Source: Staphylococcus roterodami (GTDB lineage: Bacteria > Bacillota > Bacilli > Staphylococcales > Staphylococcaceae). Taken from it: a stretch of 64,000 nucleotides of DNA. Position 1 is the stretch's first letter. Every line of letters begins with the position of its first letter. Below are positions 6,667-37,532 of the stretch, in pieces. Position numbers and translations under genes: made by a program. Location of the stretch: the NCBI GenBank assembly GCA_022493055.1, contig CP092781.1, positions 186,001 through 250,000 of the forward strand, read 5' to 3'. The notes beneath the pieces were generated by a model. It was not told the DNA's origin. It saw nothing but the letters and a program-made list of their open reading frames with translations, and made no database searches.

Positions 6667-6746
6667 TGTAAACGTTTACAATTTATGATTGACATTAATA
6701 ATGACTGACTATATGATTTATGTAAGTATTTGTGCAAACGTTTTCA
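6667..6746 (+). promoter_or_regulatory. Promoter of the sugar importer operon with two cre-like operators
   Basis: A strong sigma-A type promoter is visible: TTGACA (6689-6694), a 17-base spacer and TATGAT (6712-6717). It is bracketed by TGTAAACGTTTACA (6667-6680), a perfect palindrome matching the CcpA cre consensus, and TGCAAACGTTTTCA (6733-6746), a second cre-like site in the transcribed leader. The arrangement predicts carbon catabolite repression, by roadblock from the downstream site. A LacI-family local regulator is an alternative, but none is encoded nearby. Confidence 0.75.
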
Positions 6747-6795
6747 CGAAATGTATTACACAATAAAAGTTTAAACAAAGTATGGGAGGCATAAC

Positions 6796-7893
6796 ATGGC
6801 AGAACTAAAGTTAGAGCATATTAAAAAGACGTATGACAATAACAACACTGTAGTGAAAGACTTCAATTTACATATTACTGACAAAGAATTTATTGTATTT
6901 GTCGGACCATCAGGATGCGGTAAATCTACAACATTACGTATGATTGCGGGTCTAGAGTCTATCACATCCGGGGATTTCTATATTGATGGGGAACGCATGA
7001 ATGATGTTGAACCTAAGAACAGAGACATTGCGATGGTATTTCAAAATTATGCATTATATCCACATATGACTGTTTTTGAAAATATGGCATTTGGACTAAA
7101 GCTGCGTAAAGTTAACAAAAAAGAGATTGAACAAAAAGTTAATGAAGCAGCAGAAATACTAGGTTTAACTGAGTATCTTGGACGTAAACCAAAGGCGTTA
7201 TCAGGTGGACAACGACAACGTGTTGCTTTAGGTAGAGCTATTGTAAGAGATGCGAAAGTATTTTTAATGGATGAACCATTATCAAATCTAGATGCGAAGC
7301 TACGTGTACAGATGCGTACAGAAATTTTGAAATTACATAAGCGACTTAATACTACAACGATTTATGTCACACATGACCAGACTGAAGCGTTGACAATGGC
7401 TAGTCGAATTGTTGTTTTAAAAGATGGCGACATTATGCAAGTTGGCACACCAAGAGAGATATACGACTCGCCGAATTGCATATTTGTGGCGCAATTTATC
7501 GGCTCTCCAGCGATGAATATGTTGAAAGCTACAGTTGAAATGGATGGGTTGAAAATTGGGACACACCATTTTAAATTACATAATAAAAAATTTGAAAAGT
7601 TAAAAGACGCTGGCTATCTAGATAAGGAAATCATTTTAGGTGTTAGAGCTGAAGACATTCATGAAGAACCGATATTTATACAATCCTCTCCAGATACACA
7701 ATTTGTATCTGAAGTAGTTGTATCTGAATTGTTAGGTTCTGAAATTATGGTACATAGTACATTCCAAGGAATGGAATTAATTTCTAAATTAGATTCAAGA
7801 ACGCAAGTGATGGCGAATGACAAGATTACATTAGCATTTGATATGAACAAGTGTCACTTTTTTGATGAAAATACTGGAAATCGAATTGTTTAA
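6796..7893 (+). CDS. Sugar ABC transporter ATP-binding protein (MsmX/UgpC type)
   Basis: A 365-residue cytoplasmic ATPase that energises carbohydrate importers of the CUT1 class. Seen: Walker A G37-T45 (GPSGCGKST), Q-loop [11 protein letters not shown], signature LSGGQ at 135-139, Walker B with D159-E160, H-loop YVTHDQTEA, and a C-terminal TOBE/MOP-like regulatory domain from about residue 240 ([23 protein letters not shown]). Start: ATG preceded by ATGGGAGGC. It is the first gene of the operon, behind a cre-controlled promoter and 12 bases before the binding-protein start. MsmX-type ATPases can serve several importers in Firmicutes, so this one may also power other sugar permeases in the cell. 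S. aureus annotations use msmX or ugpC for it. Confidence 0.92.
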
Positions 7894-7905
7894 GGGGGAA
7901 TGTTC

Positions 7906-9177
7906 ATGTCTAAATTTTTAAAATGTATCACGTTAGTTATTGCAATGTTATTAATCGTAACTGGATGTGGCCCTAATCGTTCGAAGGAAGATATTGATAA
8001 AGCATTAAATAAAGATAATTCTAAAGAAAAGCCGAATCAACTTACGATGTGGGTGGATGGCGACAAGCAGATGGCTTTTTATAAAAAAATTACTAATCAG
8101 TATACTAAAAAAACTGGTATAAAAGTAAAACTTGTAAATGTGGGTCAGAATGATCAATTAGAAAATATTTCACTAGATGCACCTGCTGGGAAAGGACCAG
8201 ATATCTTTTTTTTAGCACATGATAATACTGGAAGTGCATATCTACAAGGCTTAGCTGCGGAAATTAAATTATCAAAAGATGAGTTAAAAGGTTTCAATAA
8301 ACAAGCGCTTAAAGCGATGAATTATGACAACAAACAACTAGCATTACCTGCTATCGTTGAAACAACTGCACTTTTCTATAATAAAAAGTTAGTGAAAAAT
8401 GCGCCACAAACGTTAGAAGAAGTTGAAGCGAATGCTGCCAAATTAACAAATAGTAAAAAGAAACAATACGGTATGCTATTCGATGCTAAAAACTTCTATT
8501 TTAATTATCCATTTTTATTTGGAAATGACGATTATATTTTCAAGAAAAATAGCAGTGAATATGATATCCATCGATTAGGATTGAATTCTAAAAATGTAGT
8601 AAAGAATGCTGAACGTTTACAAAAATGGTATGACAAAGGGTATCTCCCAAAAGCTGCTACTCATGATGTGATGATTGGTCTTTTTAAAGAAGGCAAAGTA
8701 GGACAATTTGTAACGGGACCATGGAATATTAATGAGTATCAAGAGACATTTGGTAAAGATCTTGGTGTGACAACATTGCCTACAGATGGTGGCAAACAGA
8801 TGAAGCCGTTTCTTGGCGTACGTGGTTGGTATCTATCTGAATATAGTAAGCATAAGTATTGGGCTAAAGACTTAATGTTGTATATCACTAGTAAAGATAC
8901 ATTACAAAAGTATACAGATGAAATGAGCGAAATTACTGGTCGTGTGGATGTGAAATCATCTAATCCGAATTTGAAAGTGTTTGAAAAACAAGCGCGTCAC
9001 GCTGAACCGATGCCTAATATTCCAGAAATGAGACAAGTTTGGGAACCGATGGGCAATGCCAGTACATTTATCTCGAATGGTAAGAATCCTAAAGAAGCTT
9101 TAGATGAAGCAACGAATGATATTACGCAAAATATTAAGATTCTACATCCATCAAAAAATGATGAGAAAGGAGATTAG
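7906..9177 (+). CDS. Sugar ABC transporter substrate-binding lipoprotein (MalE-like)
   Basis: Extracellular solute-binding protein, SBP_bac_1 class. The N-terminus MSKFLKCITLVIAMLLIVTGCG is a lipoprotein signal with lipobox VTGC, so the mature protein is lipid-anchored at the outer face of the membrane. The body shows the maltose-binding pattern: LTMWVDGDKQMAFYKKITNQYTKKTGIKVKL, PAGKGPDIFFLAHDNTG, GQFVTGPWNI and a C-terminal EPMPNIPEMRQVWEPMGNA. The start at 7906 has AAGGGGG seven bases upstream; the ATG at 7900 almost abuts it. It is usually annotated as maltose/maltodextrin-binding, but the downstream oxidoreductases and isomerase suggest another glycoside or oxidised sugar. That is inference. 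Confidence 0.88.
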   Translation: MSKFLKCITLVIAMLLIVTGCGPNRSKEDIDKALNKDNSKEKPNQLTMWVDGDKQMAFYKKITNQYTKKTGIKVKLVNVGQNDQLENISLDAPAGKGPDIFFLAHDNTGSAYLQGLAAEIKLSKDELKGFNKQALKAMNYDNKQLALPAIVETTALFYNKKLVKNAPQTLEEVEANAAKLTNSKKKQYGMLFDAKNFYFNYPFLFGNDDYIFKKNSSEYDIHRLGLNSKNVVKNAERLQKWYDKGYLPKAATHDVMIGLFKEGKVGQFVTGPWNINEYQETFGKDLGVTTLPTDGGKQMKPFLGVRGWYLSEYSKHKYWAKDLMLYITSKDTLQKYTDEMSEITGRVDVKSSNPNLKVFEKQARHAEPMPNIPEMRQVWEPMGNASTFISNGKNPKEALDEATNDITQNIKILHPSKNDEKGD

Positions 9178-9179
9178 TT

Positions 9180-10448
9180 ATGATGAAACGTAACCCTAAA
9201 TTAGCTGCATTATTATCTGTCATACCTGGATTGGGCCAGTTTTATAACAAAAGACCTATAAAAGGCACGATATTCTTTATCTTCTTTATCAGTTTTATTT
9301 CTGTATTTTATAGCTTTTTAAATATTGGTTTTTGGGGATTATTCACATTAGGTACTGTACCTAAATTAGATGATTCTCGTGTATTACTAGCTCAAGGTAT
9401 CATTTCTTTATTGCTTGTAGCTTTCGCAATAATGTTATATATCATTAACATTTTAGATGCATATCGTAATGCTAAACGGTTTAATCGTAATGAAGAAATA
9501 AAAAATCCGAAAGCACTGATGGTTGCAACTTGGGATAAGACTTTCCCATATTTACTAATCTCACCAGGTACATTCTTATTGATATTTGTTGTTGTATTTC
9601 CACTGATATTTATGTTTGGTGTGGCATTTACGAACTACAATTTATACAATGCGCCTCCTAGGCACACATTAGAGTGGGTTGGTTTAGATAATTTCAAAAC
9701 ATTATTCACAATCGGTGTTTGGCGCAAAACATTTTTTAGTGTTATTACTTGGACATTAGTTTGGACACTTGTTGCAACAACACTTCAAATTGCATTAGGT
9801 CTATTTTTGGCAATCATTGTCAATCATCCTGTTGTTAAAGGAAAGAAATTTATTCGTACGGTGCTAATTTTACCTTGGGCTGTACCATCATTTGTAACGA
9901 TATTAATTTTTGTAGCATTATTTAATGATGAATTTGGTGCTATAAATAATAGCATTTTGCAACCATTATTAGGTGTGGCACCAGCGTGGTTAAGTGATCC
10001 GTTTTGGACAAAAATTGCTTTAATTGGTATCCAAGTATGGCTAGGTTTTCCCTTTGTCTTTGCACTTTTCACAGGTGTATTACAAAGTATTTCATCTGAT
10101 TGGTATGAAGCAGCAGACATGGATGGTGCATCAAGCTGGCAAAAGTTTAGAAACATCACATTCCCACATGTCATATATGCCACTGCACCATTGTTAATTA
10201 TGCAATATGCAGGCAATTTTAATAATTTCAATCTTATCTATTTATTTAATAAAGGTGGTCCGCCAGTTTCAGGTCAAAATGCGGGTAGTACGGACATCTT
10301 AATATCTTGGGTATACAATCTGACATTTGAGTTTAATAACTTTAATATGGGTGCAGTTGTGTCATTAATTATTGGTTTTATTGTGGCTATTGTGGCATTT
10401 ATTCAATTCAGACGTACTAGTACTTTTAAAGATGAGGGAGGTTTATAA
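9180..10448 (+). CDS. Sugar ABC transporter permease, MalF-like
   Basis: A 422-residue inner-membrane permease of the CUT1 importer. Residues 1-35 (KLAALLSVIPGLGQFYNKRPIKGTIFF) form the extra N-terminal membrane module common in Firmicute MalF proteins, followed by a hydrophilic stretch and six core helices. The EAA loop that contacts the ATPase is DWYEAADMDGASSWQKFRNITFPHV. The start codon lies two bases after the previous stop, with AAAGGAG eleven bases upstream, so translation is probably coupled. Function and partner follow from operon position between the binding protein and the MalG-like gene. Confidence 0.9.
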   Translation: MMKRNPKLAALLSVIPGLGQFYNKRPIKGTIFFIFFISFISVFYSFLNIGFWGLFTLGTVPKLDDSRVLLAQGIISLLLVAFAIMLYIINILDAYRNAKRFNRNEEIKNPKALMVATWDKTFPYLLISPGTFLLIFVVVFPLIFMFGVAFTNYNLYNAPPRHTLEWVGLDNFKTLFTIGVWRKTFFSVITWTLVWTLVATTLQIALGLFLAIIVNHPVVKGKKFIRTVLILPWAVPSFVTILIFVALFNDEFGAINNSILQPLLGVAPAWLSDPFWTKIALIGIQVWLGFPFVFALFTGVLQSISSDWYEAADMDGASSWQKFRNITFPHVIYATAPLLIMQYAGNFNNFNLIYLFNKGGPPVSGQNAGSTDILISWVYNLTFEFNNFNMGAVVSLIIGFIVAIVAFIQFRRTSTFKDEGGL

Positions 10449-10449
10449 G

Positions 10450-11289
10450 ATGGCAAAGAAGAAGCGTATTATAAAAGCAATCGGAATTTATAGTTTTATA
10501 GCGATGATGTTTGTCATCATATTGTATCCATTATTGTGGACGTTCGGTATTTCCCTTAATCCAGGTACGAATTTATATGGTGCTAAGATGATACCGGATG
10601 ATGCGACATTTAAAAATTATGCCTTTTTATTATTTGATGAAAGTAGTCAATATTTAACTTGGTATAAAAATACGCTCATTGTAGCATCAGCAAATGCATT
10701 GTTTAGTGTGATATTTGTTACGTTAACAGCATATGCCTTTTCAAGATATCGCTTTGTAGGACGCAAATATGGATTAATTACATTTTTGATTTTACAAATG
10801 TTCCCAGTATTGATGGCAATGGTCGCAATCTATATTTTATTAAATACAATCGGGTTATTAGATTCATTATTTGGATTAACGCTTGTATATATTGGTGGTT
10901 CGATACCGATGAATGCATTTTTAGTGAAAGGTTATTTTGACACGATCCCTAAAGAACTTGATGAATCTGCAAAAATTGATGGGGCTGGACATATGCGTAT
11001 TTTCTTACAAATCATGTTGCCATTAGCTAAACCGATTCTAGCAGTTGTTGCTTTATTCAATTTTATGGGACCATTTATGGACTTTATCTTACCTAAAATT
11101 TTATTGAGAAGCCCTGAAAAATTCACTTTAGCAGTCGGACTTTTCAACTTTATTAACGATAAATATGCAAACAATTTCACAGTGTTTGCGGCAGGGGCCA
11201 TTATGATTGCAGTCCCTATAGCAATTGTATTCTTGTTCTTGCAACGCTATTTAGTATCAGGATTAACGACAGGTGCAACAAAAGGTTAG
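10450..11289 (+). CDS. Sugar ABC transporter permease, MalG-like
   Basis: A 279-residue permease with about six transmembrane helices, the second half of the heterodimeric channel. The EAA loop is KELDESAKIDGAGHMRIFLQIMLPLAKPIL; the helix pattern starts IIKAIGIYSFIAMMFVIILYPLLWTFGISL. The start at 10450 is one base after the stop of the upstream permease and has GGGAGG eight bases before it; a longer frame from 10372 lies inside the upstream gene and is not used. With the preceding three genes it completes an ATPase, binding protein and two-permease importer. Confidence 0.91.
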   Translation: MAKKKRIIKAIGIYSFIAMMFVIILYPLLWTFGISLNPGTNLYGAKMIPDDATFKNYAFLLFDESSQYLTWYKNTLIVASANALFSVIFVTLTAYAFSRYRFVGRKYGLITFLILQMFPVLMAMVAIYILLNTIGLLDSLFGLTLVYIGGSIPMNAFLVKGYFDTIPKELDESAKIDGAGHMRIFLQIMLPLAKPILAVVALFNFMGPFMDFILPKILLRSPEKFTLAVGLFNFINDKYANNFTVFAAGAIMIAVPIAIVFLFLQRYLVSGLTTGATKG

Positions 11290-11360
11290 TTTGAATCGGA
11301 GTAGGACAGAAATGGTAAAGAACCACAAATGATGATAATGATTTAAAGGAGGACGCGATA

Positions 11361-12437
11361 ATGACGATTAAAGTTGGAATTATTGGATGTGGTGGTATTG
11401 CAAATGGCAAACACATGCCTAGTTTGCAAAAAGTTGAAGATGTTGAAATGGTCGCATTTTGCGATGTAGATATTTCGAAAGCGGAGTGTGCGGCAGAAGC
11501 ATATGGCACGAAAGATGCACAAGTTTATGATGACTATCAAGATTTGTTAAAAGATAAAGAGATTGATGTTATCCATGTATGTACACCGAATGATTCACAT
11601 TGTGAAATTACAGTAGCGGGATTATACGCTGGTAAACATGTGATGTGTGAAAAACCGATGGCTAAAACGACAGCAGAAGCTCAAAAAATGATAGATGCAG
11701 CTCAAGAAATAGGTAAAAAGTTAACAATAGGTTATCAAAACCGTTTCCGTTCAGATAGTCAAATTTTATATCAATCAGCGCAACGTGGTGATTTAGGTGA
11801 CATTTACTTTGGAAAAGCACATGCAATTCGTCGACGTGCTGTGCCAACATGGGGCGTTTTCTTAAATGAGGAAGCACAAGGTGGTGGCCCTTTAATTGAC
11901 ATCGGGACGCATGCATTAGATTTAACATTATGGATGATGAATAATTATGAACCAGAATCAGTGATGGGTTCAACATTTCATAAATTAAATAAACAACATG
12001 ATGCTGCAAATGCTTGGGGATCATGGAATCCAGATGAATTTACAGTTGAAGATTCTGCATTTGGATTCATTAAAATGAAAAACGGTGCAACCATTATTTT
12101 AGAATCTGCATGGGCAATTAATTCTTTGGAAGTTGATGAAGCAAAATGTTCGTTATCCGGAACAAAAGCGGGAGCTGATATGAAAGACGGTTTGCGTATT
12201 CATGGAGAAGATATGGGGACACTTTATACTAAACATGTTGAATTAGAAAACAAAGGTGTCGACTTTTATGAAGGTAATGAAGTGGACGAAGCTGAAGAAG
12301 AAGCGAAAGCATGGATAAATGCAATTGTGAATGATACAGAACCAGTTGTGAAACCTGAACAAGCAATGATAGTAACTAAAATACTTGAAGCAATTTATCA
12401 ATCTGCAAAATCAGGCAAAGCCGTTTACTTTGATTAA
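11361..12437 (+). CDS. Gfo/Idh/MocA family NAD(P)-dependent oxidoreductase 1
   Basis: A 358-residue two-domain sugar dehydrogenase. The N-terminal Rossmann fold begins VGIIGCGGIANGKHMPSL (dinucleotide loop) and carries the family lysine motif CEKPMAKTTAEAQ. The C-terminal alpha/beta domain has GGGPLIDIGTHALDLTLWMM, in which the aspartate and histidine are the usual catalytic acid/base positions. Start: ATG with AAAGGAGG. It follows the permease by 71 bases. Family members oxidise a ring hydroxyl of sugars, inositols or glycosides, or rearrange them through keto intermediates. The substrate is unknown. It is a paralogue of the next gene. Confidence 0.9.
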   Translation: MTIKVGIIGCGGIANGKHMPSLQKVEDVEMVAFCDVDISKAECAAEAYGTKDAQVYDDYQDLLKDKEIDVIHVCTPNDSHCEITVAGLYAGKHVMCEKPMAKTTAEAQKMIDAAQEIGKKLTIGYQNRFRSDSQILYQSAQRGDLGDIYFGKAHAIRRRAVPTWGVFLNEEAQGGGPLIDIGTHALDLTLWMMNNYEPESVMGSTFHKLNKQHDAANAWGSWNPDEFTVEDSAFGFIKMKNGATIILESAWAINSLEVDEAKCSLSGTKAGADMKDGLRIHGEDMGTLYTKHVELENKGVDFYEGNEVDEAEEEAKAWINAIVNDTEPVVKPEQAMIVTKILEAIYQSAKSGKAVYFD

Positions 12438-12461
12438 TATCTTTTATTAAGGAGGAACATC

Positions 12462-13502
12462 ATGACTAAACTAAACGTTGGTGTGATAGGTGTTGGCGGC
12501 ATTGCACAAGACCGTCATATTCCAGCATTACTGAAACTAAAAGATAAAGTTTCACTAGTAGCAGTGCAAGATATTAACACCGTGCAAATGATTGATGTTG
12601 CCAAACGTTTTAATATTCCGCATGCAGTTGAAACGCCAAGAGAATTGTTTAAACTCGTTGATGCGGTTATCATATGCACGCCTAACAAATTCCATGCTGA
12701 TCTTTCAATAGAAGCATTGAATCATGGTGTCCATGTAATGTGTGAAAAACCAATGGCAATGACGACAGAAGAGTGTGATCGTATGATTGAAGCTGCTAAC
12801 AGAAACCAAAAATTATTAACTGTTGCGTATCATTACCGACATACTGATGTCGCTATAACTGCTAAAAAAGCAATTGAATCAGGTGTGGTTGGTAAACCTT
12901 TAGTAGCACGTGTACAAGCGATGCGTAGGCGTAAAGTGCCTGGATGGGGTGTTTTTACAAATAAAGCATTGCAAGGTGGCGGTAGCTTAATCGACTATGG
13001 ATGCCATTTATTAGATTTATCCATGTGGTTATTAGGTAAAGATATGTTGCCACAAAATGTTTTAGGAAAAACATATAATCAATTGAGCAAACAGCCGAAT
13101 CAAATTAATGATTGGGGAACATTTGATCATGAAACATTTGATGTGGATGATCATGTCACGAGTTATATGACATTTTCCAATCGAGCTAGTATGCAGTTTG
13201 AATGTTCTTGGTCTGCAAATATTAAAGAAGACAAGATGCACGTAAGTTTATCGGGTGAAAATGGCGGTATTAATTTATTTCCTTTTGAAATTTATGAACC
13301 CCGTTTTGGAACTATTGTTGAAAGTTGTGCTGATGTTGAGCATAACGAAGACATCGCTGGAGATAGTCAGGCTCGAAACTTTGTTAATGCGTGTTTAGGG
13401 ATAGAAGAGATTGTGGTGAAACCGGAAGAAGCACGCAATGTAAATGCCCTTATAGAAGCGATTTATCGTAGTGATTTAGATGATAAGAGCATACAACTTT
13501 AA
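12462..13502 (+). CDS. Gfo/Idh/MocA family NAD(P)-dependent oxidoreductase 2
   Basis: A 346-residue paralogue of the preceding enzyme with the same landmarks: VGVIGVGGIAQDRHIPAL at the N-terminus, CEKPMAMTTEECDRMIEAA, a shared RRRKVPGWGVF motif (RRRAVPTWGVF in its neighbour), and GGGSLIDYGCHLLDLSMWLL. Start: ATG with AAGGAGGAACATC. The gap to the upstream stop is 24 bases. Two such dehydrogenases in tandem suggest either successive oxidation and reduction of one substrate through a 3-keto intermediate or a heteromeric enzyme. Both are inferences. Confidence 0.9.
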   Translation: MTKLNVGVIGVGGIAQDRHIPALLKLKDKVSLVAVQDINTVQMIDVAKRFNIPHAVETPRELFKLVDAVIICTPNKFHADLSIEALNHGVHVMCEKPMAMTTEECDRMIEAANRNQKLLTVAYHYRHTDVAITAKKAIESGVVGKPLVARVQAMRRRKVPGWGVFTNKALQGGGSLIDYGCHLLDLSMWLLGKDMLPQNVLGKTYNQLSKQPNQINDWGTFDHETFDVDDHVTSYMTFSNRASMQFECSWSANIKEDKMHVSLSGENGGINLFPFEIYEPRFGTIVESCADVEHNEDIAGDSQARNFVNACLGIEEIVVKPEEARNVNALIEAIYRSDLDDKSIQL

Positions 13503-13557
13503 TGATTGATATAAATGATAAAAAATTCTCAATATATAAATGAAGGAGTGCTTTTCA

Positions 13558-14526
13558 ATGAAAATAGGTGTATTTTCAGTATTATTTTACGATAAAAACT
13601 TTGAGGAAATGTTGGATTATGTTGCAGAATCTGGATTAGATATGATTGAAGTTGGAACAGGTGGTAATCCAGGAGATAAATTCTGTAAGCTAGATGAATT
13701 ATTAGAAAACGAAGACAAGAGACAAGTATTTATGAAGTCAATTACAGACAGAGGATTGCAAATAAGTGGCTTCAGTTGTCATAACAATCCAATTTCGCCA
13801 GACCCTGAAGAAGCAAAAGAAGCGGATGAAACTTTACGTAAAACAATTCGTTTAGCAAATCTTTTAGATGTACCTGTTGTTAATACGTTCTCTGGAATTG
13901 CTGGTTCAGATGATACAGCTAAAAAACCAAACTGGCCTGTGACACCTTGGCCAACAGCATACTCTGAAATATATGATTATCAGTGGAATGAAAAGTTGAT
14001 ACCATATTGGAAAGATTTAGCTGAATTTGCAAAAGAACAAGATGTTAAAATTGCAATAGAGTTACATGCAGGATTTTTAGTGCATACACCATACACAATG
14101 TTGAAATTACGTGAAGCTACGAACGAATATATTGGTGCTAATTTAGATCCAAGTCATTTATGGTGGCAAGGAATTGATCCAGTTGCCGCAATCCGAATTT
14201 TAGGCCAAGCAAATGCAATACATCACTTCCATGCAAAAGATACGTACATTAATCAAGAAAATGTAAACATGTATGGATTAACTGATATGCAACCATATGG
14301 TAATGTTGCAACAAGAGCATGGACATTCCGTACAGTTGGTTATGGACACAGTCCGTATATTTGGGCAGATATCATTAGTCAACTTATTATTAATGGTTAC
14401 GACTATGTATTAAGTATTGAACATGAAGATCCGATTATGTCAGTAGAAGAAGGTTTCCAAAAAGCATGTCAAACATTGAAGACTGTTAATATTTACGATA
14501 AACCAGCTGACATGTGGTGGGCATAA
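13558..14526 (+). CDS. Sugar phosphate isomerase/epimerase-like TIM-barrel protein
   Basis: A 322-residue AP-endonuclease-2-like TIM barrel (xylose-isomerase superfamily). Metal-site motifs are visible in sequence order: MIEVGTGGNPGD, VKIAIELHAGFLVHTP, IGANLDPSHLWWQGIDP, IHHFHAKDTYI and YVLSIEHEDPI, which supply the usual Glu/Asp/His ligands. The start at 13558 has GAAGGAG ten bases before it; the longer frame from 13540 overlaps that ribosome site. It ends the operon. TIM barrels paired with Gfo/Idh/MocA enzymes act as epimerases, isomerases or keto-sugar hydrolyases/lyases in inositol and 3-keto-glycoside pathways; which of these applies here cannot be read from sequence. Confidence 0.87.
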   Translation: MKIGVFSVLFYDKNFEEMLDYVAESGLDMIEVGTGGNPGDKFCKLDELLENEDKRQVFMKSITDRGLQISGFSCHNNPISPDPEEAKEADETLRKTIRLANLLDVPVVNTFSGIAGSDDTAKKPNWPVTPWPTAYSEIYDYQWNEKLIPYWKDLAEFAKEQDVKIAIELHAGFLVHTPYTMLKLREATNEYIGANLDPSHLWWQGIDPVAAIRILGQANAIHHFHAKDTYINQENVNMYGLTDMQPYGNVATRAWTFRTVGYGHSPYIWADIISQLIINGYDYVLSIEHEDPIMSVEEGFQKACQTLKTVNIYDKPADMWWA

Positions 14527-14729: not shown

Positions 14730-14848
14730 AAAGCCTGTTGTCACGTTCGTTGTAGATATAATATGTTTTAAAGATTTCTGGATGTATCAGAATATGCTTT
14801 AAAGATGTATATCTATTTTGATTAACGTGATGACAGGCTTTGTTTTTT
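14730..14848. terminator. Long bidirectional terminator hairpin
   Basis: AAAGCCTGTTGTCACGTT (14730-14747) pairs with AACGTGATGACAGGCTTT (14824-14841) over 18 positions with two internal mismatches, followed on the plus strand by GTTTTTT and preceded by AAAA for the minus strand. The 76-base loop contains a near-perfect direct repeat, ATATGTTTTAAAGAT and ATATGCTTTAAAGAT, and an inverted TAGATATA/TATATCTA. It separates convergent genes. Nothing else was seen in 14527-14730. Confidence 0.75.
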
Positions 14849-20954: not shown

Positions 20955-21040
20955 TTGACATACATTTGATGAAATTTGTACATAATTTATGTGAAAAAAA
21001 TCACAACAATCATGCTACAATGTTTATGAAAACGTTAACA
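20955..21040 (+). promoter_or_regulatory. pflB promoter with Rex-like and cre-like sites
   Basis: TTGACA (20955-20960) followed after 18 bases by TACATA is the probable promoter. Directly downstream TGTGAAAAAAATCACA (20990-21005) matches the Rex operator form also found twice at ldh1 in this window (one central base differs), and a Crp/Fnr-type (ArcR) factor is an alternative reader of TGTGA-N6-TCACA. TGAAAACGTTAACA (21027-21040) is a cre-like site. The combination predicts derepression at high NADH and glucose-dependent control. Confidence 0.7.
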
Positions 21041-21084
21041 TAGCATTTCAAATTCACAACATTATACAAATGGAGGCGTTTAGT

Positions 21085-33122: not shown

Positions 33123-34334
33123 TTAAACAAATGCAGAATCACCAGTTAAGGCACGTCCAATTACTAATGCATTAATTTCATGAGTACCTTCGTATGTGTA
33201 AATTGCTTCTGCATCGGAGAAGAAACGTGCAATATCATAATCATCGGCAAGAATACCGTTGCCACCTGTAATGCCTCGTCCCATTGCTACCGTCTCGCGT
33301 AAACGTAATGCATTCATCATTTTAGCTGTAGAAGTTGCAACTTCATCATATTCACCATGTGCTTGCATGTTAGCTAATTGAGCACATGTTGCCATTGCTT
33401 GAGCTAAATTACCTTGCATCATTGCTAGCTTTTCTTGTATTAACTGATATTTACTAATTGGTTTGCCGAATTGCTTACGCTCAGTGACATAATCTAATGT
33501 GGCACGTAGTGCACCAGCCATACCACCCGTAGCCATATATGCGACACCTGCTCGTGTTGAATAAAGGATTTTAGCAATGTCTTTAAAGCTTGTTATGTTT
33601 TGTAAGCGATCTGCTTCATCTACTTTGACATTAGTTAATTTAATTAGTGCGTTAGGTACGATACGAAGGGCAATTTTGTTATCAATGACTTCAATATCCA
33701 CACCATCTTGCTCTGGTCTGACAACAAAGCAATGTGGTTTGCCTGTCTCCTTATTTACAGCGAATACAGGGATTACGTCAGAAACATGTGCACCACCAAT
33801 CCATTTCTTTTCGCCATTAATAACCCAAGTGTCACCTTGACGTTCTGCGACTGTTTCTAAGCCTCCTGCAACGTCAGAGCCATGCTCAGGTTCTGTTAAT
33901 GCAAAGCATGTACGCAATTCATGAGACTGTAATTTTGGTACATATTTCGCGATTTGTTCTTTGCTACCCCCGAAAAAGAAAGTGTTATGCCCCAAACCTT
34001 GGTGAACACCGAGTAGGGTTGCGAGTGAAATGTCAAAACGAGCGAGTAGATAAGACATGAAAAATTGAAATAGTTGACTCGGCATTTTGGCATTTGGTCT
34101 ATCTTTATAAAGTAATGGGTTATTAAAGTAATTTAATTCTCCTAAATCTTTAAAATAATCTTCAGGTACTGTGGCGTCTATCCAATGTTGATTGATATCT
34201 GGTCGATATTTACTTTCAAGTAAATTGTCAACTTGTTGTAAAAATTCAACTTCACCGTCTGTTAAACCTTTAGCAATACTAAGCACATCTTCAGGGAATA
34301 ATGATTTTAAGACTTTTTCTTTTTCAAATGTCAT
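33123..34334 (-). CDS. fadD: Acyl-CoA dehydrogenase
   Basis: A 403-residue FAD enzyme for the first oxidation of acyl-CoA. Visible motifs: CFALTEPEHGSDVAGG (FAD/substrate loop), WVINGEKKWIGGA, RKQFGKPISKYQLIQEKLAMM, and the C-terminal YEGTHEINALVIGRALTG, in which the glutamate is the likely catalytic base. The sequence pattern is close to the glutaryl-CoA dehydrogenase branch. Start: ATG with TTAGGAGGAATTTAT. In S. aureus the name fadD is used for this dehydrogenase and fadE for the CoA ligase, the reverse of E. coli. Confidence 0.92.
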   Translation of the reverse strand: MTFEKEKVLKSLFPEDVLSIAKGLTDGEVEFLQQVDNLLESKYRPDINQHWIDATVPEDYFKDLGELNYFNNPLLYKDRPNAKMPSQLFQFFMSYLLARFDISLATLLGVHQGLGHNTFFFGGSKEQIAKYVPKLQSHELRTCFALTEPEHGSDVAGGLETVAERQGDTWVINGEKKWIGGAHVSDVIPVFAVNKETGKPHCFVVRPEQDGVDIEVIDNKIALRIVPNALIKLTNVKVDEADRLQNITSFKDIAKILYSTRAGVAYMATGGMAGALRATLDYVTERKQFGKPISKYQLIQEKLAMMQGNLAQAMATCAQLANMQAHGEYDEVATSTAKMMNALRLRETVAMGRGITGGNGILADDYDIARFFSDAEAIYTYEGTHEINALVIGRALTGDSAFV

Positions 34335-34404
34335 ATAAATTCCTCCTAAAAATAATATGAATATTTATGGAAATCACATACATACAAACCTTAATGAAGA
34401 TATT

Positions 34405-34418
34405 TGTAAACGCTTACA
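34405..34418 (-). promoter_or_regulatory. cre site between fadE and fadD
   Basis: TGTAAACGCTTACA is a near-ideal CcpA cre palindrome in the 101-base gap between fadE and fadD. It would act as an internal roadblock or control a secondary promoter within the operon. Confidence 0.75.
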
Positions 34419-34435
34419 AAACAGCGTAAAATTTT

Positions 34436-35944
34436 TTACTTTAATGTTTCTGATACTTTGTCATTCATCATTTGTCGAATCGCAAGTTTGTCTGGTTTTT
34501 GTGTACTATTTAACGGCATATGTGTCACAGGTACATACATTCTTGGTACTTTGTAGCCAGCCAAACGATTACGCATATGTTGATCTAACTTTTCAGCATA
34601 GTTAGGATCATCTTCGCGAAGTATGATGGCTGCTGCTATTGACTCACCATATTTTGGATGATCATAGCCTACGACAACACACCGATCAATTAGTGGATGC
34701 TCAGCTAAAGCATTTTCAACTTCAGATGGTAAGACATTTTCGCCACCTGTAATGATAAGTTCTTTTTTACGATCAATGATGAAAATATCGCCATCTTCAT
34801 CCATTTTTGCTAGATCGCCTGTTAATAAATAACGACCATGAAACGATTTGGCAGTTTCTTCAGGTTTGTTCCAATATCCAGGTGTTACATTTTTCGCTTT
34901 AATAGCAAGCTCGCCGATGTCGCCAGTAGGGACTTCTTGACCATTTTCATCAAGAATTCGTGCATCAACAAACATGACTGCTTTACCAATACTCATCGGT
35001 TTGCGTTTCGAATTTTCCGGTGTATTAACGAGTACTAGAGGTGCTTCAGTTAATCCATAACCATTGATAATATTAATACCATATTGTTTAAATGCTGCTT
35101 GAATACTTGGTAATGGCTGTGAACCACCTTGAATAATGTAATCCATTGCTTTAAAATTATCAGGATTAAAATTACAGGCTCGTAGCGTACTATAATACAT
35201 CGTTGGAATCATGATAATAAAAGTAGGCTTGTACTGTGCAATCATGTCGTTCAATTCTTCTCCATTAAAATAACGTTGTAGAATCAATGTGCCACCTGAC
35301 ATCAAAACGGGCAACACTGTATCATTAAATCCTAAAACATGGAACATAGGTGTAGATACAATCGTAATATAATTTGAATTAAACTTATATGTCAGTTCTA
35401 AGTTTGCACCATTATGAACAAATGATTCATACGAGAACATTACGCCTTTAGGTGATCCAGTAGTACCACTTGTATAAATTAACGCTGCAAGATCTTGTGG
35501 TTCGACCGGTGTTGCTTGAAAAGGTTGATGATGATTTGGATCTACAATTTCATCATATTGACGCGAATCGATATCCATGTGTAATAGCTTTTGATCAATG
35601 TTTGTTAAAGAACTTAGGTGTTTTTCTGCATAAAAGAGAAGCTTTAGTTGTGCATCTTCCACAATAGCTGCTATCTCTTTAGGACTGAGTCTCCAATTCA
35701 TGGGTAAAAATACAGCACCTGTTTTAAAACAAGAAAATAGTAAATCTAATATTGCAATATCATTTGGAGCAAAAACACCTATGACATCACCTTTCTTAAC
35801 ACCTTGAGAAGTTAAATAATGCGCCATATTATCAGCGCGGGCGTTAAGTTGTTGGTATGTCCAAGAGGTCTGTTTTGCGTGATCAATGACAGCAGGTTTG
35901 TCATCATCGAAATCTGAACGCGTTTTAATCCAATCGAAATTCAT
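34436..35944 (-). CDS. fadE: Acyl-CoA synthetase (AMP-forming)
   Basis: A 502-residue adenylate-forming ligase that activates carboxylic acids to CoA esters. Motifs: P-loop LIYTSGTTGSPKGVMFS, GYGLTEAP, LTGDLAKMDEDGDIFIIDRKKELIITGGENVLPSEVE (hinge and core) and the C-terminal catalytic lysine in NSTQKPDKLAIR. Start at 35944 with AAAGGGGG eight bases upstream (MNFDWIKTRSDF); a frame from 36031 overlaps fadX and lacks a ribosome site. It is 25 bases after the fadX stop. Chain-length preference cannot be read from sequence; ligases of this clade often prefer short to medium or branched acids. Confidence 0.92.
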   Translation of the reverse strand: MNFDWIKTRSDFDDDKPAVIDHAKQTSWTYQQLNARADNMAHYLTSQGVKKGDVIGVFAPNDIAILDLLFSCFKTGAVFLPMNWRLSPKEIAAIVEDAQLKLLFYAEKHLSSLTNIDQKLLHMDIDSRQYDEIVDPNHHQPFQATPVEPQDLAALIYTSGTTGSPKGVMFSYESFVHNGANLELTYKFNSNYITIVSTPMFHVLGFNDTVLPVLMSGGTLILQRYFNGEELNDMIAQYKPTFIIMIPTMYYSTLRACNFNPDNFKAMDYIIQGGSQPLPSIQAAFKQYGINIINGYGLTEAPLVLVNTPENSKRKPMSIGKAVMFVDARILDENGQEVPTGDIGELAIKAKNVTPGYWNKPEETAKSFHGRYLLTGDLAKMDEDGDIFIIDRKKELIITGGENVLPSEVENALAEHPLIDRCVVVGYDHPKYGESIAAAIILREDDPNYAEKLDQHMRNRLAGYKVPRMYVPVTHMPLNSTQKPDKLAIRQMMNDKVSETLK

Positions 35945-35969
35945 TAGTATACCCCCTTTAGCTTCACTT

Positions 35970-37532
35970 TCATACTTTATGAATTGATTGTCTAAGTTGT
36001 CCCCACTTTTTTTGATAAATGCTACTATCAATCATTTTTAAATTGTCAGCAATCAATGGTTCAAATGCCATTTGATTTAATATATCTTTTTGCAAATCAA
36101 GGCCTGGTGCGATTTCAATTAGCTTTAAACCTTTATCCACTAGCTCGAATACGGCACGGTCAGTAACAAAGTATACTTCTTGATTAAGTGACCGCGAGTA
36201 CTGTGCATTAAAGTCTATATGGCTTACTTCGGATACAAATTTTTTAGTATGACCTTCGTTTTCAATATCTAATTTATGTTCATAACATGATATTGTGCTC
36301 CCTGCGACGAACGTTCCTGAAAAAATAATTTTGTTAACAGATTGCGTAATGTCTATAAAACCACCACAACCATTTAATCGGTCATTAAAGTAGGACACAT
36401 TGACATTGCCATATTGATCTACTTCTGCAAAGCTAAGATAAGCAACAGATACACCATTGTTATAGATAAAATCCCAAGCTTGATCATGACGCATACGTAC
36501 ATCTGCGTTATAGTTCATACCAAAACGTTCACGGCTTCCTACAAATCCACCAAAAATGCCGACATCTAGAATTGGTTGTACGTCATGTGCGACACGTTCT
36601 TCATAAAGCAAATTTGAAAGCTCATTGTTAATACCATAGCCAATACTAATCGTATCGCCGTATGTTAAAAATTGAGCGGCACGTCTAAGAATAAGTTTGC
36701 GATTATTAAATGGCAACGGTTGTTCAGGTATACAATCAATACGTTCTTGACCTGACAATGCAGGTAAATAATGACTTTGAATTACTTGACGATGATTGTG
36801 ATCATCTTGGGTAACATATACATAATCAACAATACTTCCAGGAATAATAACATCATTTGGTTTTAGTTGATAGTCATCAACTATAGCTTTAACTTGTACG
36901 ATAACGGTGCCATGATTGGCCTTAGTATTTAAAGCAACATGATAACATTCGCTCAAGTATGCTTCTTGTGTTAAATATATATTACCTTGCTTATCTGCAT
37001 AGGTTCCTCTCAGCAATGCCACATCAACGCTAGGGAATGTGTAATGCAAATATGTTTCATCGCGTATGTTGACTATAGAAACTAAGTCTTCTGTAGTATA
37101 CGCGTTTACTTTGCCTCCTCCATATCTGGGATCAACAGCAGTATTTAAACCAATTTTTGTAAGCACACCAGGTAAAAGATGGTTACTTTGACGATAATGA
37201 GTAGCAATGACACCTTGTGGTAAGAAGTATGCTTCAATGTCATTGTTTTTCATAGCTTGTGCTGTTTTTGACGAAGCAGTTAAAATACTCATAATGACAC
37301 GCTTAATCATGCCACGTTCAATAAAGTCATCTAGATCGGGTGCAACGCCCAAACTATGGATATCATTCGCTAAAATAAAGGTTAAATCATTAGGCGTCTG
37401 GTATTTGTCGTGTTGCGCTAACACAGCACGTAGAACTTCGGCAGGTAAATTGGCAACAGCTAGAGCCGATAAACCAATCACATCACCGTCTTTAATGATA
37501 TGTTGTAAATCGTGCCATGTGATTTGCTTCAA
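35970..37532 (-). CDS. fadX: Acetate/acyl CoA-transferase
   Basis: A 520-residue fused alpha-beta type I CoA-transferase (propionate/acetate CoA-transferase class). GGGKVNAYTTEDLV and GTYADKQGNIYLTQEAYL are in the first half. The expected active-site glutamate is in SIGYGINNELSNLLYEE, followed by VGSRERFG. Start: TTG at 37532 with GGAGGTG six bases upstream fits best; GTG or ATG codons at 37550 and 37547 lie before that ribosome site. It is the first gene of the operon. It would move CoA between acetyl-CoA or acetoacetyl-CoA and free acids. Confidence 0.88.
   Translation of the reverse strand: MKQITWHDLQHIIKDGDVIGLSALAVANLPAEVLRAVLAQHDKYQTPNDLTFILANDIHSLGVAPDLDDFIERGMIKRVIMSILTASSKTAQAMKNNDIEAYFLPQGVIATHYRQSNHLLPGVLTKIGLNTAVDPRYGGGKVNAYTTEDLVSIVNIRDETYLHYTFPSVDVALLRGTYADKQGNIYLTQEAYLSECYHVALNTKANHGTVIVQVKAIVDDYQLKPNDVIIPGSIVDYVYVTQDDHNHRQVIQSHYLPALSGQERIDCIPEQPLPFNNRKLILRRAAQFLTYGDTISIGYGINNELSNLLYEERVAHDVQPILDVGIFGGFVGSRERFGMNYNADVRMRHDQAWDFIYNNGVSVAYLSFAEVDQYGNVNVSYFNDRLNGCGGFIDITQSVNKIIFSGTFVAGSTISCYEHKLDIENEGHTKKFVSEVSHIDFNAQYSRSLNQEVYFVTDRAVFELVDKGLKLIEIAPGLDLQKDILNQMAFEPLIADNLKMIDSSIYQKKWGQLRQSIHKV

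What the first reader, a model, noticed from the sequence alone, without database searches (positions are those of the whole stretch)
6667..14526. Catabolite-controlled importer/dehydrogenase operon of unknown substrate
Seven genes form one unit: ATPase, lipoprotein, two permeases, two Gfo/Idh/MocA dehydrogenases and a TIM barrel. The importer is usually called maltose-type, yet no glucosidase or maltose enzyme is present. Paired Gfo/Idh/MocA and TIM-barrel proteins are characteristic of inositol or 3-keto-glycoside chemistry. The operon may import and break down a glycoside or modified sugar by an oxidation-elimination route not described for S. aureus. The promoter is bracketed by two cre-like sites.
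Basis: partly seen in the sequence, partly recalled or inferred. Interest (0 to 1): 0.72.

Follow-up and report, generated by a model that had tools for sequence, protein, structure and literature searches.

The report
Maltose-type importer with 3-keto-sugar enzymes
This Staphylococcus aureus operon joins a maltose-type sugar importer to three enzymes that look like a cut-down version of a known pathway that breaks sugar bonds by first oxidising carbon 3 of glucose, a chemistry our searches did not find reported for this species.

Summary
The seven genes and two operator-like palindromes around a sigma-A-like promoter are confirmed. The importer is MalE/MalF/MalG-like. 'No maltose enzyme' is true only locally: a GH13 glucosidase (MalA by recall) lies 1.3 Mb away beside a LacI-type gene. 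In relatives that glucosidase closes the importer operon (Mammaliicoccus G020) or sits at the importer/dehydrogenase locus (7 of 11 Staphylococcus genomes with the linked set). Dehydrogenase 1 groups with DgpA, a characterised glucoside 3-dehydrogenase (54-58% identity, support 99). The TIM barrel's two best fold matches are AtHYD, a 2-hydroxy-3-keto-glucal hydratase, and SCO6571 of unknown function. Dehydrogenase 2's model matches DgpA best. Relatives often carry ThuA and sometimes an AtOGE-related eliminase-like TIM barrel as well; a Listeria record has five genes in a row. S. aureus keeps three, under purifying selection. Best reading: a catabolite-controlled alpha-glucoside importer fused to a reduced 3-keto-glucoside pathway (oxidation, elimination/hydration, reduction). 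Substrate and catalysis are untested. Inositol is not supported. New variant of a known kind.

The parts
6667..6680 (.). upstream operator-like palindrome TGTAAACGTTTACA (cre / LacI-family type)
   Evidence: same position in S. schweitzeri and G030
6689..6717 (+). sigma-70-type promoter TTGACA-17-TATGAT, 11 of 12
   Evidence: 57 promoter-like hits in 10.5 kb against 55.4 in shuffles, so a match alone is weak; the place between the two operators is what counts
6733..6746 (.). downstream operator-like site TGCAAACGTTTTCA
6796..7893 (+). importer ATPase, MsmX/UgpC/MalK type
   Evidence: NF008653 497 bits, cut-off 432
7900..9177 (+). substrate-binding lipoprotein, MalE-like (matches PDB 4hs7/4hw8 over residues 20-425)
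9180..10448 (+). permease, MalF type
10450..11289 (+). permease, MalG type
11361..12437 (+). DH1: Gfo/Idh/MocA dehydrogenase of the DgpA clade (predicted glucoside 3-dehydrogenase)
12462..13502 (+). DH2: second Gfo/Idh/MocA dehydrogenase (predicted 3-keto-glucose reductase)
13558..14526 (+). TIM barrel, AtHYD-like (predicted 2-hydroxy-3-keto-glucal hydratase, perhaps with eliminase activity)
14730..14841 (.). inverted repeat followed by a T-run, likely transcription terminator after the operon

Best explanation
A LacI-family/CcpA-type controlled catabolic operon. Step 1: the lipoprotein, two permeases and ATPase import a maltose-like alpha-glucoside (inferred). Step 2: ordinary maltose is cut in the cytoplasm by a GH13 glucosidase (MalA by recall) encoded elsewhere (inferred). 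Step 3: DH1, an NAD-dependent DgpA-clade enzyme, oxidises C3 of a glucosyl residue of an imported or related glucoside (strong inference from clade). Step 4: the TIM barrel, probably metal-dependent, adds water to 2-hydroxy-3-keto-glucal and perhaps also does the preceding beta-elimination, as reported for LgdB2, giving 3-keto-glucose (inferred). Step 5: DH2 reduces 3-keto-glucose to glucose with the NADH formed in step 3 (weaker inference). The net result is redox-neutral hydrolysis of a glucosidic bond, a multi-protein equivalent of a GH4 glycosidase. I know of no experiment that shows any of these steps in S. aureus.
Against: The folds are shared by enzymes of differing reaction; no NCBIfam model of a named function passes its cut-off for DH1, DH2 or TIM. 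The binding protein scores higher with the galacto-oligosaccharide model GanS (263.5 bits, cut-off 700) than with MalE (213.5, cut-off 291), both below cut-off. The partner GH13 is MalA only by recall: NCBIfam puts phosphotrehalase first for three tested members, two below all cut-offs and the Oceanobacillus one over the PRK10933 subfamily cut-off. S. aureus lacks ThuA, and its only other PF01261 gene is deoxyribonuclease IV, so the elimination step has no dedicated enzyme of these types; AtHYD itself is reported inactive on 3-keto-phlorizin (PMC10628242, section 7), so a bifunctional TIM barrel is extrapolated from LgdB2. DgpA's substrates in the passages seen are aryl C- and O-glucosides, not disaccharides. 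If a glucosidase already splits maltose, an oxidative route for the same sugar looks redundant. SCO6571 (2zds), of unknown function, is as close a fold match as AtHYD. The ThuA-less, importer-linked state is a single event on the tree, so the 11-against-16 contrast is one observation.
Confidence: 0.5

Rival explanations
1. Salvage or repair: the three enzymes do not cleave imported sugar but return 3-keto-glucosides or 3-keto-glucose (made by other microbes or by side reactions) to normal sugars, DH1 and DH2 working mainly as reductases; the importer brings in 3-keto-maltose-like sugars along with maltose.
For: LgdA is reported to be faster in the reductive direction (PMC7676230, parts 1 and 2 read); lack of ThuA and of a second sugar-type TIM barrel leaves a set that suits reduction and hydration better than cleavage; a GH13 glucosidase remains for cleavage.
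Against: Two dehydrogenases plus a TIM barrel are more than a reductase needs; in Listeria the set is larger and looks fully catabolic.
Confidence: 0.2
2. A substrate other than maltose: the operon takes up and oxidatively cleaves another glycoside (trehalose-, isomaltose- or sucrose-like, a galacto-oligosaccharide, or a plant beta-glucoside).
For: DgpA acts on O- and C-beta-glucosides (PMC11239390, passages); the binding protein's highest-scoring family model is GanS, below cut-off; positions matching E. coli MalE W62, R66, E153, P154 and R344 are changed (alignment, contact list recalled); the tested GH13 partners score highest with phosphotrehalase models.
Against: The importer's genomic partner in relatives is a GH13 glucosidase with a LacI-type gene, and D14, K15, D65, E111, Y155, W230 and W340 of MalE are kept.
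Confidence: 0.17
3. Plain maltose operon with passengers: the importer serves maltose only, and the three downstream genes do something unrelated that happens to share the transcript.
For: In 6 Mammaliicoccus-type genomes the importer and the dehydrogenase cassette are on different contigs or far apart; in 16 of 27 Staphylococcus genomes with the cassette there is no ortholog of the binding protein.
Against: The two are within about 10 kb of each other in all 11 Staphylococcus genomes that have both, in three different arrangements among those read; the S. intermedius group puts the glucosidase directly behind TIM.
Confidence: 0.1
4. Inositol catabolism (IolG-like dehydrogenases and an IolE-like TIM barrel).
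For: IolG is the top NCBIfam hit for DH1 and second for DH2, and IolE the only hit for TIM.
Against: Scores 114 and 104.7 bits against cut-off 355 (IolG), 35.6 against 290 (IolE); the IolD model gives no hit over cut-off in the genome, while 3 of 14 control genomes pass it; DgpA is far closer.
Confidence: 0.03

Closest known systems
DgpA-DgpB-DgpC puerarin C-deglycosylation system (gut strain PUE)
   Same: DH1 is a DgpA-clade dehydrogenase, 53.6-57.5% identical; the DH2 model matches DgpA best
   Different: PF19906 (named CGDB in the output, taken here to be the DgpB family) gives no hit in the genome, but no control genome rang either; the TIM barrel's best rows are AtHYD and SCO6571; the importer is maltose-type
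Levoglucosan pathway LgdA-LgdB1-LgdB2-LgdC (Bacillus smithii; PMC7676230)
   Same: Two Gfo/Idh/MocA dehydrogenases plus TIM barrel(s) beside a sugar ABC importer and a LacI gene; LgdB2 (36 kDa, Mn-dependent, bifunctional) is the model for a lone TIM barrel
   Different: Only one TIM barrel here; DH2 reaches 108 bits of a 650-bit cut-off for levoglucosan dehydrogenase; the Lgd sequences themselves could not be compared
Agrobacterium GlycDH-AtOGE-AtHYD-Gfo operon (PMC10628242)
   Same: TIM is nearest to AtHYD among characterised structures; one relative's second TIM barrel is nearest to AtOGE
   Different: First oxidation there is by a flavoenzyme; S. aureus has no second sugar-type PF01261 gene
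MalE/MalF/MalG importers with a LacI-type regulator and GH13 glucosidase
   Same: Permeases and ATPase, GH13 partner gene in relatives, paired LacI-type operators
   Different: Three dehydrogenase/TIM genes share the operon, and the glucosidase lies elsewhere in the genome

Membership tests
Gfo/Idh/MocA oxidoreductases (DH1, DH2) | Pfam PF01408 over its cut-off | tested here: met
   110.1 and 109.6 bits, cut-off 24
Gfo/Idh/MocA oxidoreductases (DH1, DH2) | EKP and DxGxHxxD motifs with Lys and His (motif names recalled) | tested here: met
   sequences; E95, K96, P97, D178 invariant, G180, H182 and D185 at least 90% in 49 rows
DgpA-type glucoside 3-dehydrogenase (DH1) | falls in one clade with DgpA apart from the other Gfo/Idh/MocA groups of these loci | tested here: met
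   21-row clade, SH-aLRT 99; quick method, long-branch warning
DgpA-type glucoside 3-dehydrogenase (DH1) | 3-oxidation of a glucoside | not testable with these tools
   needs an enzyme assay
DgpABC C-deglycosylation system | DgpB/DgpC lyase present | tested here: inconclusive
   no PF19906 hit, control silent
AtHYD/LgdB2-type hydratase (TIM) | structural match to AtHYD above the general TIM-barrel background | tested here: met
AtHYD/LgdB2-type hydratase (TIM) | hydration of 2-hydroxy-3-keto-glucal, Mn-dependent | not testable with these tools
   needs an enzyme assay
Four-enzyme oxidation-elimination-hydration-reduction pathway | separate eliminase gene present (AtOGE/LgdB1-like TIM barrel, or a 3-keto-disaccharide hydrolase) | tested here: not met
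   only 2 PF01261 genes in the genome: this TIM and a deoxyribonuclease IV (474.5 bits, cut-off 333) unlike the AtOGE-related protein L049; no PF06439, 3 control genomes over cut-off
Maltose/maltodextrin importer (MalE, MalF, MalG) | NCBIfam equivalog cut-offs for MalE, MalF, MalG | tested here: not met
   213.5/291, 237.3/392, 187.6/261; for the lipoprotein GanS scores higher (263.5/700). This bars the exact label, not the likeness
Maltose/maltodextrin importer (MalE, MalF, MalG) | genomic partnership with a GH13 glucosidase and LacI-type gene in relatives | tested here: met
   Mammaliicoccus G020 operon; G074 and S. intermedius group. That this GH13 is a maltose enzyme is recalled
Myo-inositol pathway | IolG, IolE, IolD models over cut-off | tested here: not met
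CcpA/MalR regulon | binding of the regulator to the two sites | not testable with these tools
   sites only; PMC9871828 lists a MalR regulon of 9 target genes without naming them in the passage seen

The most novel reading that the evidence does not exclude
S. aureus carries a working oxidative (3-keto) route for cutting glucosides, in which one AtHYD-like TIM barrel does both elimination and hydration, so that three proteins plus an importer replace a glycosidase; it could let the bacterium use glucosides that its hydrolases cannot cut.
Probability: 0.35. Interest if true: 0.7.

Novelty: new variant of a known kind. Interest (0 to 1): 0.5.

Why it matters
If right, a much-studied human pathogen has an unrecognised sugar route, and an operon labelled simply 'maltose ABC transporter' in expression studies (PMC4207797, PMC4228149; passages seen) has been read for half its content. 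It also gives a natural test of whether elimination and hydration of a 3-keto-glucoside can be done by one protein, and makes testable what ThuA does, since related staphylococci differ by its presence.

Tried and rejected
Inositol catabolism was tested and put aside. A decaying remnant was considered because ThuA is missing; dN/dS of 0.025-0.162 against S. schweitzeri and 0.015-0.062 against G030 speaks against it. permG was not measured because the script used a start one base off. Against the more distant G074 the values are 0.033-0.139 with synonymous changes near saturation, and undefined for the ATPase.

A statistical reading of 'importer present exactly where ThuA is absent' (11 of 11 against 0 of 16 in the genus) was dropped as proof: the 8 ThuA-less rows among the 20 of the tree are one clade, so it is one event. 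I first thought G074 an independent case because its dehydrogenases are closest in pairwise identity to Mammaliicoccus; the tree did not support that.

The TIM barrel was aligned once with the distant second TIM barrel included; that alignment was not used further. PF19906 is inconclusive because no control genome rang. No DgpC structure is among the listed rows; this absence shows nothing by itself. That check, and the GanS score, made me lower the best explanation from 0.52 to 0.50 and raise the other-substrate rival from 0.15 to 0.17.

Literature. Searches were seen as listings with the starts of abstracts. I saw passages of PMC8563793, PMC11239390, PMC9007349, PMC12724307, PMC4207797, PMC4228149, PMC5020093, PMC12345173, PMC9152700, PMC4052901, PMC9871828 and PMC2697999; passages and section 7 of PMC10628242; parts 1 and 2 of 4 of PMC7676230. 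The word Staphylococcus does not occur in PMC10628242, PMC8563793, PMC11239390 or PMC12724307. PMC2697999 does not mention maltose, malR, SA0206 or SA0207 in its main text. The library holds open-licence papers only and supplements were not searched; 'not reported for S. aureus' means not found by these searches.

4hw8 is, as I recall, a maltose complex of this very lipoprotein; no call confirmed the ligand. The names MalA and MalR for the GH13 and LacI-type genes at 1,513 kb are recalled. That SACOL0192-0198 are these genes follows from the paper's product names and order; other locus tags used in searches were recalled.
Full report
Observation. The window lies at 186001-250000 of a 2.85 Mb single-contig genome of the S. 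aureus complex; S. schweitzeri matches the seven genes at 96-99%. Seven same-strand genes run from 6796 to 14526 with gaps of 1 to 71 bases. Two near-identical operator-like sites, 66 bp apart, stand on either side of a good sigma-A-type promoter. Both occur unchanged in two sister species. Two or more sites of the same type, with differing sequence and spacing, stand before the importer in G074 (one of them partial), S. intermedius, S. cornubiensis and Mammaliicoccus G020; in S. canis only one was found in the stretch before the called start. The promoter of the LacI-type gene at 1,513 kb also has two, one of which, TGCAATCGTTTGCA, is identical to a site before the Mammaliicoccus importer. 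Which sites CcpA and which the LacI-type regulator would use cannot be told from sequence. A regulatory-network paper lists a MalR regulon of nine target genes (PMC9871828, passage); nine is the sum of malR, malA and these seven genes, but the passage does not name them, so this is a coincidence of number until checked.

Importer. The permeases score best with MalF and MalG, the ATPase with the UgpC-type subfamily; the lipoprotein scores best with GanS (263.5 bits) and second with MalE (213.5). Only the ATPase passes a cut-off. The lipoprotein's best PDB match is 4hs7/4hw8, over residues 20-425 at 900 bits. Against E. coli MalE it is 30% identical and, by a recalled contact list, keeps D14, K15, D65, E111, Y155, W230 and W340 but not W62, R66, E153, P154 or R344. 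It is MalA by recall; the highest NCBIfam score is with phosphotrehalase, below cut-off. In 15 genomes searched by handle, each has one close ortholog of it (64-100%) besides one or two distant GH13 proteins (43-45%). In G074 and six S. intermedius/canis-type genomes that ortholog lies at the importer/dehydrogenase locus; in the four S. aureus-complex genomes and two S. xylosus-type genomes it lies elsewhere; in the Mammaliicoccus locus that was read (G020) it closes the importer operon. In G074 a gene for an MFS protein, best with a sucrose-symporter model but far below cut-off (65 of 511 bits), stands directly before DH1.

Dehydrogenases. DH1's two best solved relatives are DgpA1 (E 2e-129) and DgpA (E 2.5e-126); the next is at 1e-30. 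In a tree of 150 Gfo/Idh/MocA rows (148 from these loci, 2 DgpA), DH1 and 18 orthologs form a 21-row clade with DgpA, support 99. DgpA oxidises C3 of glucosides, with bound NAD and 3-oxo-glucose as oxidant (PMC11239390, PMC8563793; passages). DH2 forms a separate clade; its model still matches DgpA best, so 3-keto-sugar chemistry is likely, but the direction of the reaction is a guess by analogy with LgdC.

TIM barrel. By sequence the PDB hits at E 0.001 or better are 2zds (2e-11), AtHYD 8ro4 (1e-7) and 3dx5 (4e-4); by fold the first two stand clear of the rest. AtHYD is reported, on what its authors call preliminary evidence, to hydrate 2-hydroxy-3-keto-glucal (PMC10628242, section 7). LgdB2 of the levoglucosan route does this and, with low affinity, also the elimination before it (PMC7676230). 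Residues 235-261 of the model are of low confidence.

Cassette. Of 80 named loci kept from one scan (best 80 of 529, so biased to near relatives), 77 have at least one Gfo/Idh/MocA gene within 6 kb, 64 at least two, 58 ThuA, 19 a second TIM barrel, 16 GH13, 28 LacI, 13 AraC; 3 have no Gfo/Idh/MocA neighbour. These cluster names rest on one to three members tested each: ThuA L044, second TIM L049, AraC L050, GH13 L059, L041 and L121, LacI L041 and L068. The second TIM barrel of L049 matches the eliminase AtOGE (8bvk) best. A Listeria record (labelled plasmid) has in a row: a dehydrogenase 68% identical to DH1, a small TIM barrel 34% identical to that of L049, ThuA, this TIM barrel (65%), and a dehydrogenase only 25% identical to DH2; its small TIM barrel matches 8tcd-type entries slightly better than AtOGE. 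So S. aureus has a three-gene form of a cassette that is larger in many relatives. Its genome has no ThuA, no PF06439 hydrolase, and no other sugar-type PF01261 gene: the second one is deoxyribonuclease IV.

Distribution. Among 108 Staphylococcaceae genomes, 43 have a TIM ortholog (at least 64% identity), 32 have ThuA over cut-off and all 32 are among the 43; the 11 with TIM but no ThuA are the 11 genomes of the genus with the binding-protein ortholog (E up to 1e-60). In that genus the other 16 TIM genomes have ThuA and no such ortholog. Of the seven TIM-bearing genomes of group g4 (Mammaliicoccus by contig match), all have ThuA and six have the binding-protein ortholog, at a separate place. 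On the tree of the three enzymes the 8 ThuA-less rows of 20 are one clade (support 100/99), so this is one event.

Selection and expression. dN/dS against S. schweitzeri is 0.029, 0.031, 0.033, 0.162, 0.068 and 0.025 for ATPase, lipoprotein, MalF-type permease, DH1, DH2 and TIM, and 0.015-0.062 against G030; permG was not measured. DH1's higher value comes with a low dS (0.111). A transcriptome table lists all seven genes, SACOL0192-0198, at 10.2-21.5 in what I read as the aqueous-humour column (PMC4207797, passage). In endocarditis vegetations malE, malF and malK were raised in 10 of the 12 listed comparisons, malE being not significant in 2 of its 4 (PMC4228149, passage).

Judgement. It works like the oxidation-elimination-hydration-reduction routes. 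DH1 is a member of the DgpA clade. The set is not a member of the four-enzyme pathway as defined, since a dedicated eliminase of the known types was looked for and not found. Importer substrate: probably maltose-like, not proven. Overall a new variant of a known kind, moderately interesting, cheap to test.

Noticed in passing
L038:7465-7800: S. schweitzeri has about 265 more bases between permG and DH1 than S. aureus (which has 71), with a GGGGCCCCGCCCC stretch (STAR-like, name recalled); the two halves of the operon might be uncoupled there.
   Followed up: partly
L122:5183-7452: In genome G019 the DH2 gene is interrupted by about 1.4 kb carrying two minus-strand ORFs.
   Followed up: no
window 34404-34419: A strict cre-type inverted site lies between an acyl-CoA dehydrogenase-like ORF (33123-34334) and an acyl-CoA synthetase-like ORF (34436-36031), suggesting catabolite control of a fatty-acid oxidation cluster; the ORF names are from reading the sequence, not from a search.
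   Followed up: partly
window 21026-21041: A cre-type site just upstream of a 754-aa ORF at 21070 (likely pflB, by recall of gene order).
   Followed up: no
L118:11002-12405: An MFS transporter gene (sucrose-symporter-like, below cut-off) directly before DH1 in G074, with two palindromic operator-like sites in front and a partial third.
   Followed up: partly
G000:C1:1848588-1848601: The only other copy of the perfect palindrome TGTAAACGTTTACA in the genome; its gene was not looked up.
   Followed up: no
L123 (NZ_LR134401.1 25568-42533): A Listeria monocytogenes record labelled 'plasmid 4' (810 kb) carries the five-gene cassette next to ribonucleotide reductase genes, so it may be a chromosome piece.
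   Followed up: no
SAUSA300_0209 and 0211 (by locus tag): Transposon mutants of two genes of this importer are among the ciprofloxacin-competition hits of PMC12345173, with little or no change in MIC or accumulation in the table (passage).
   Followed up: no
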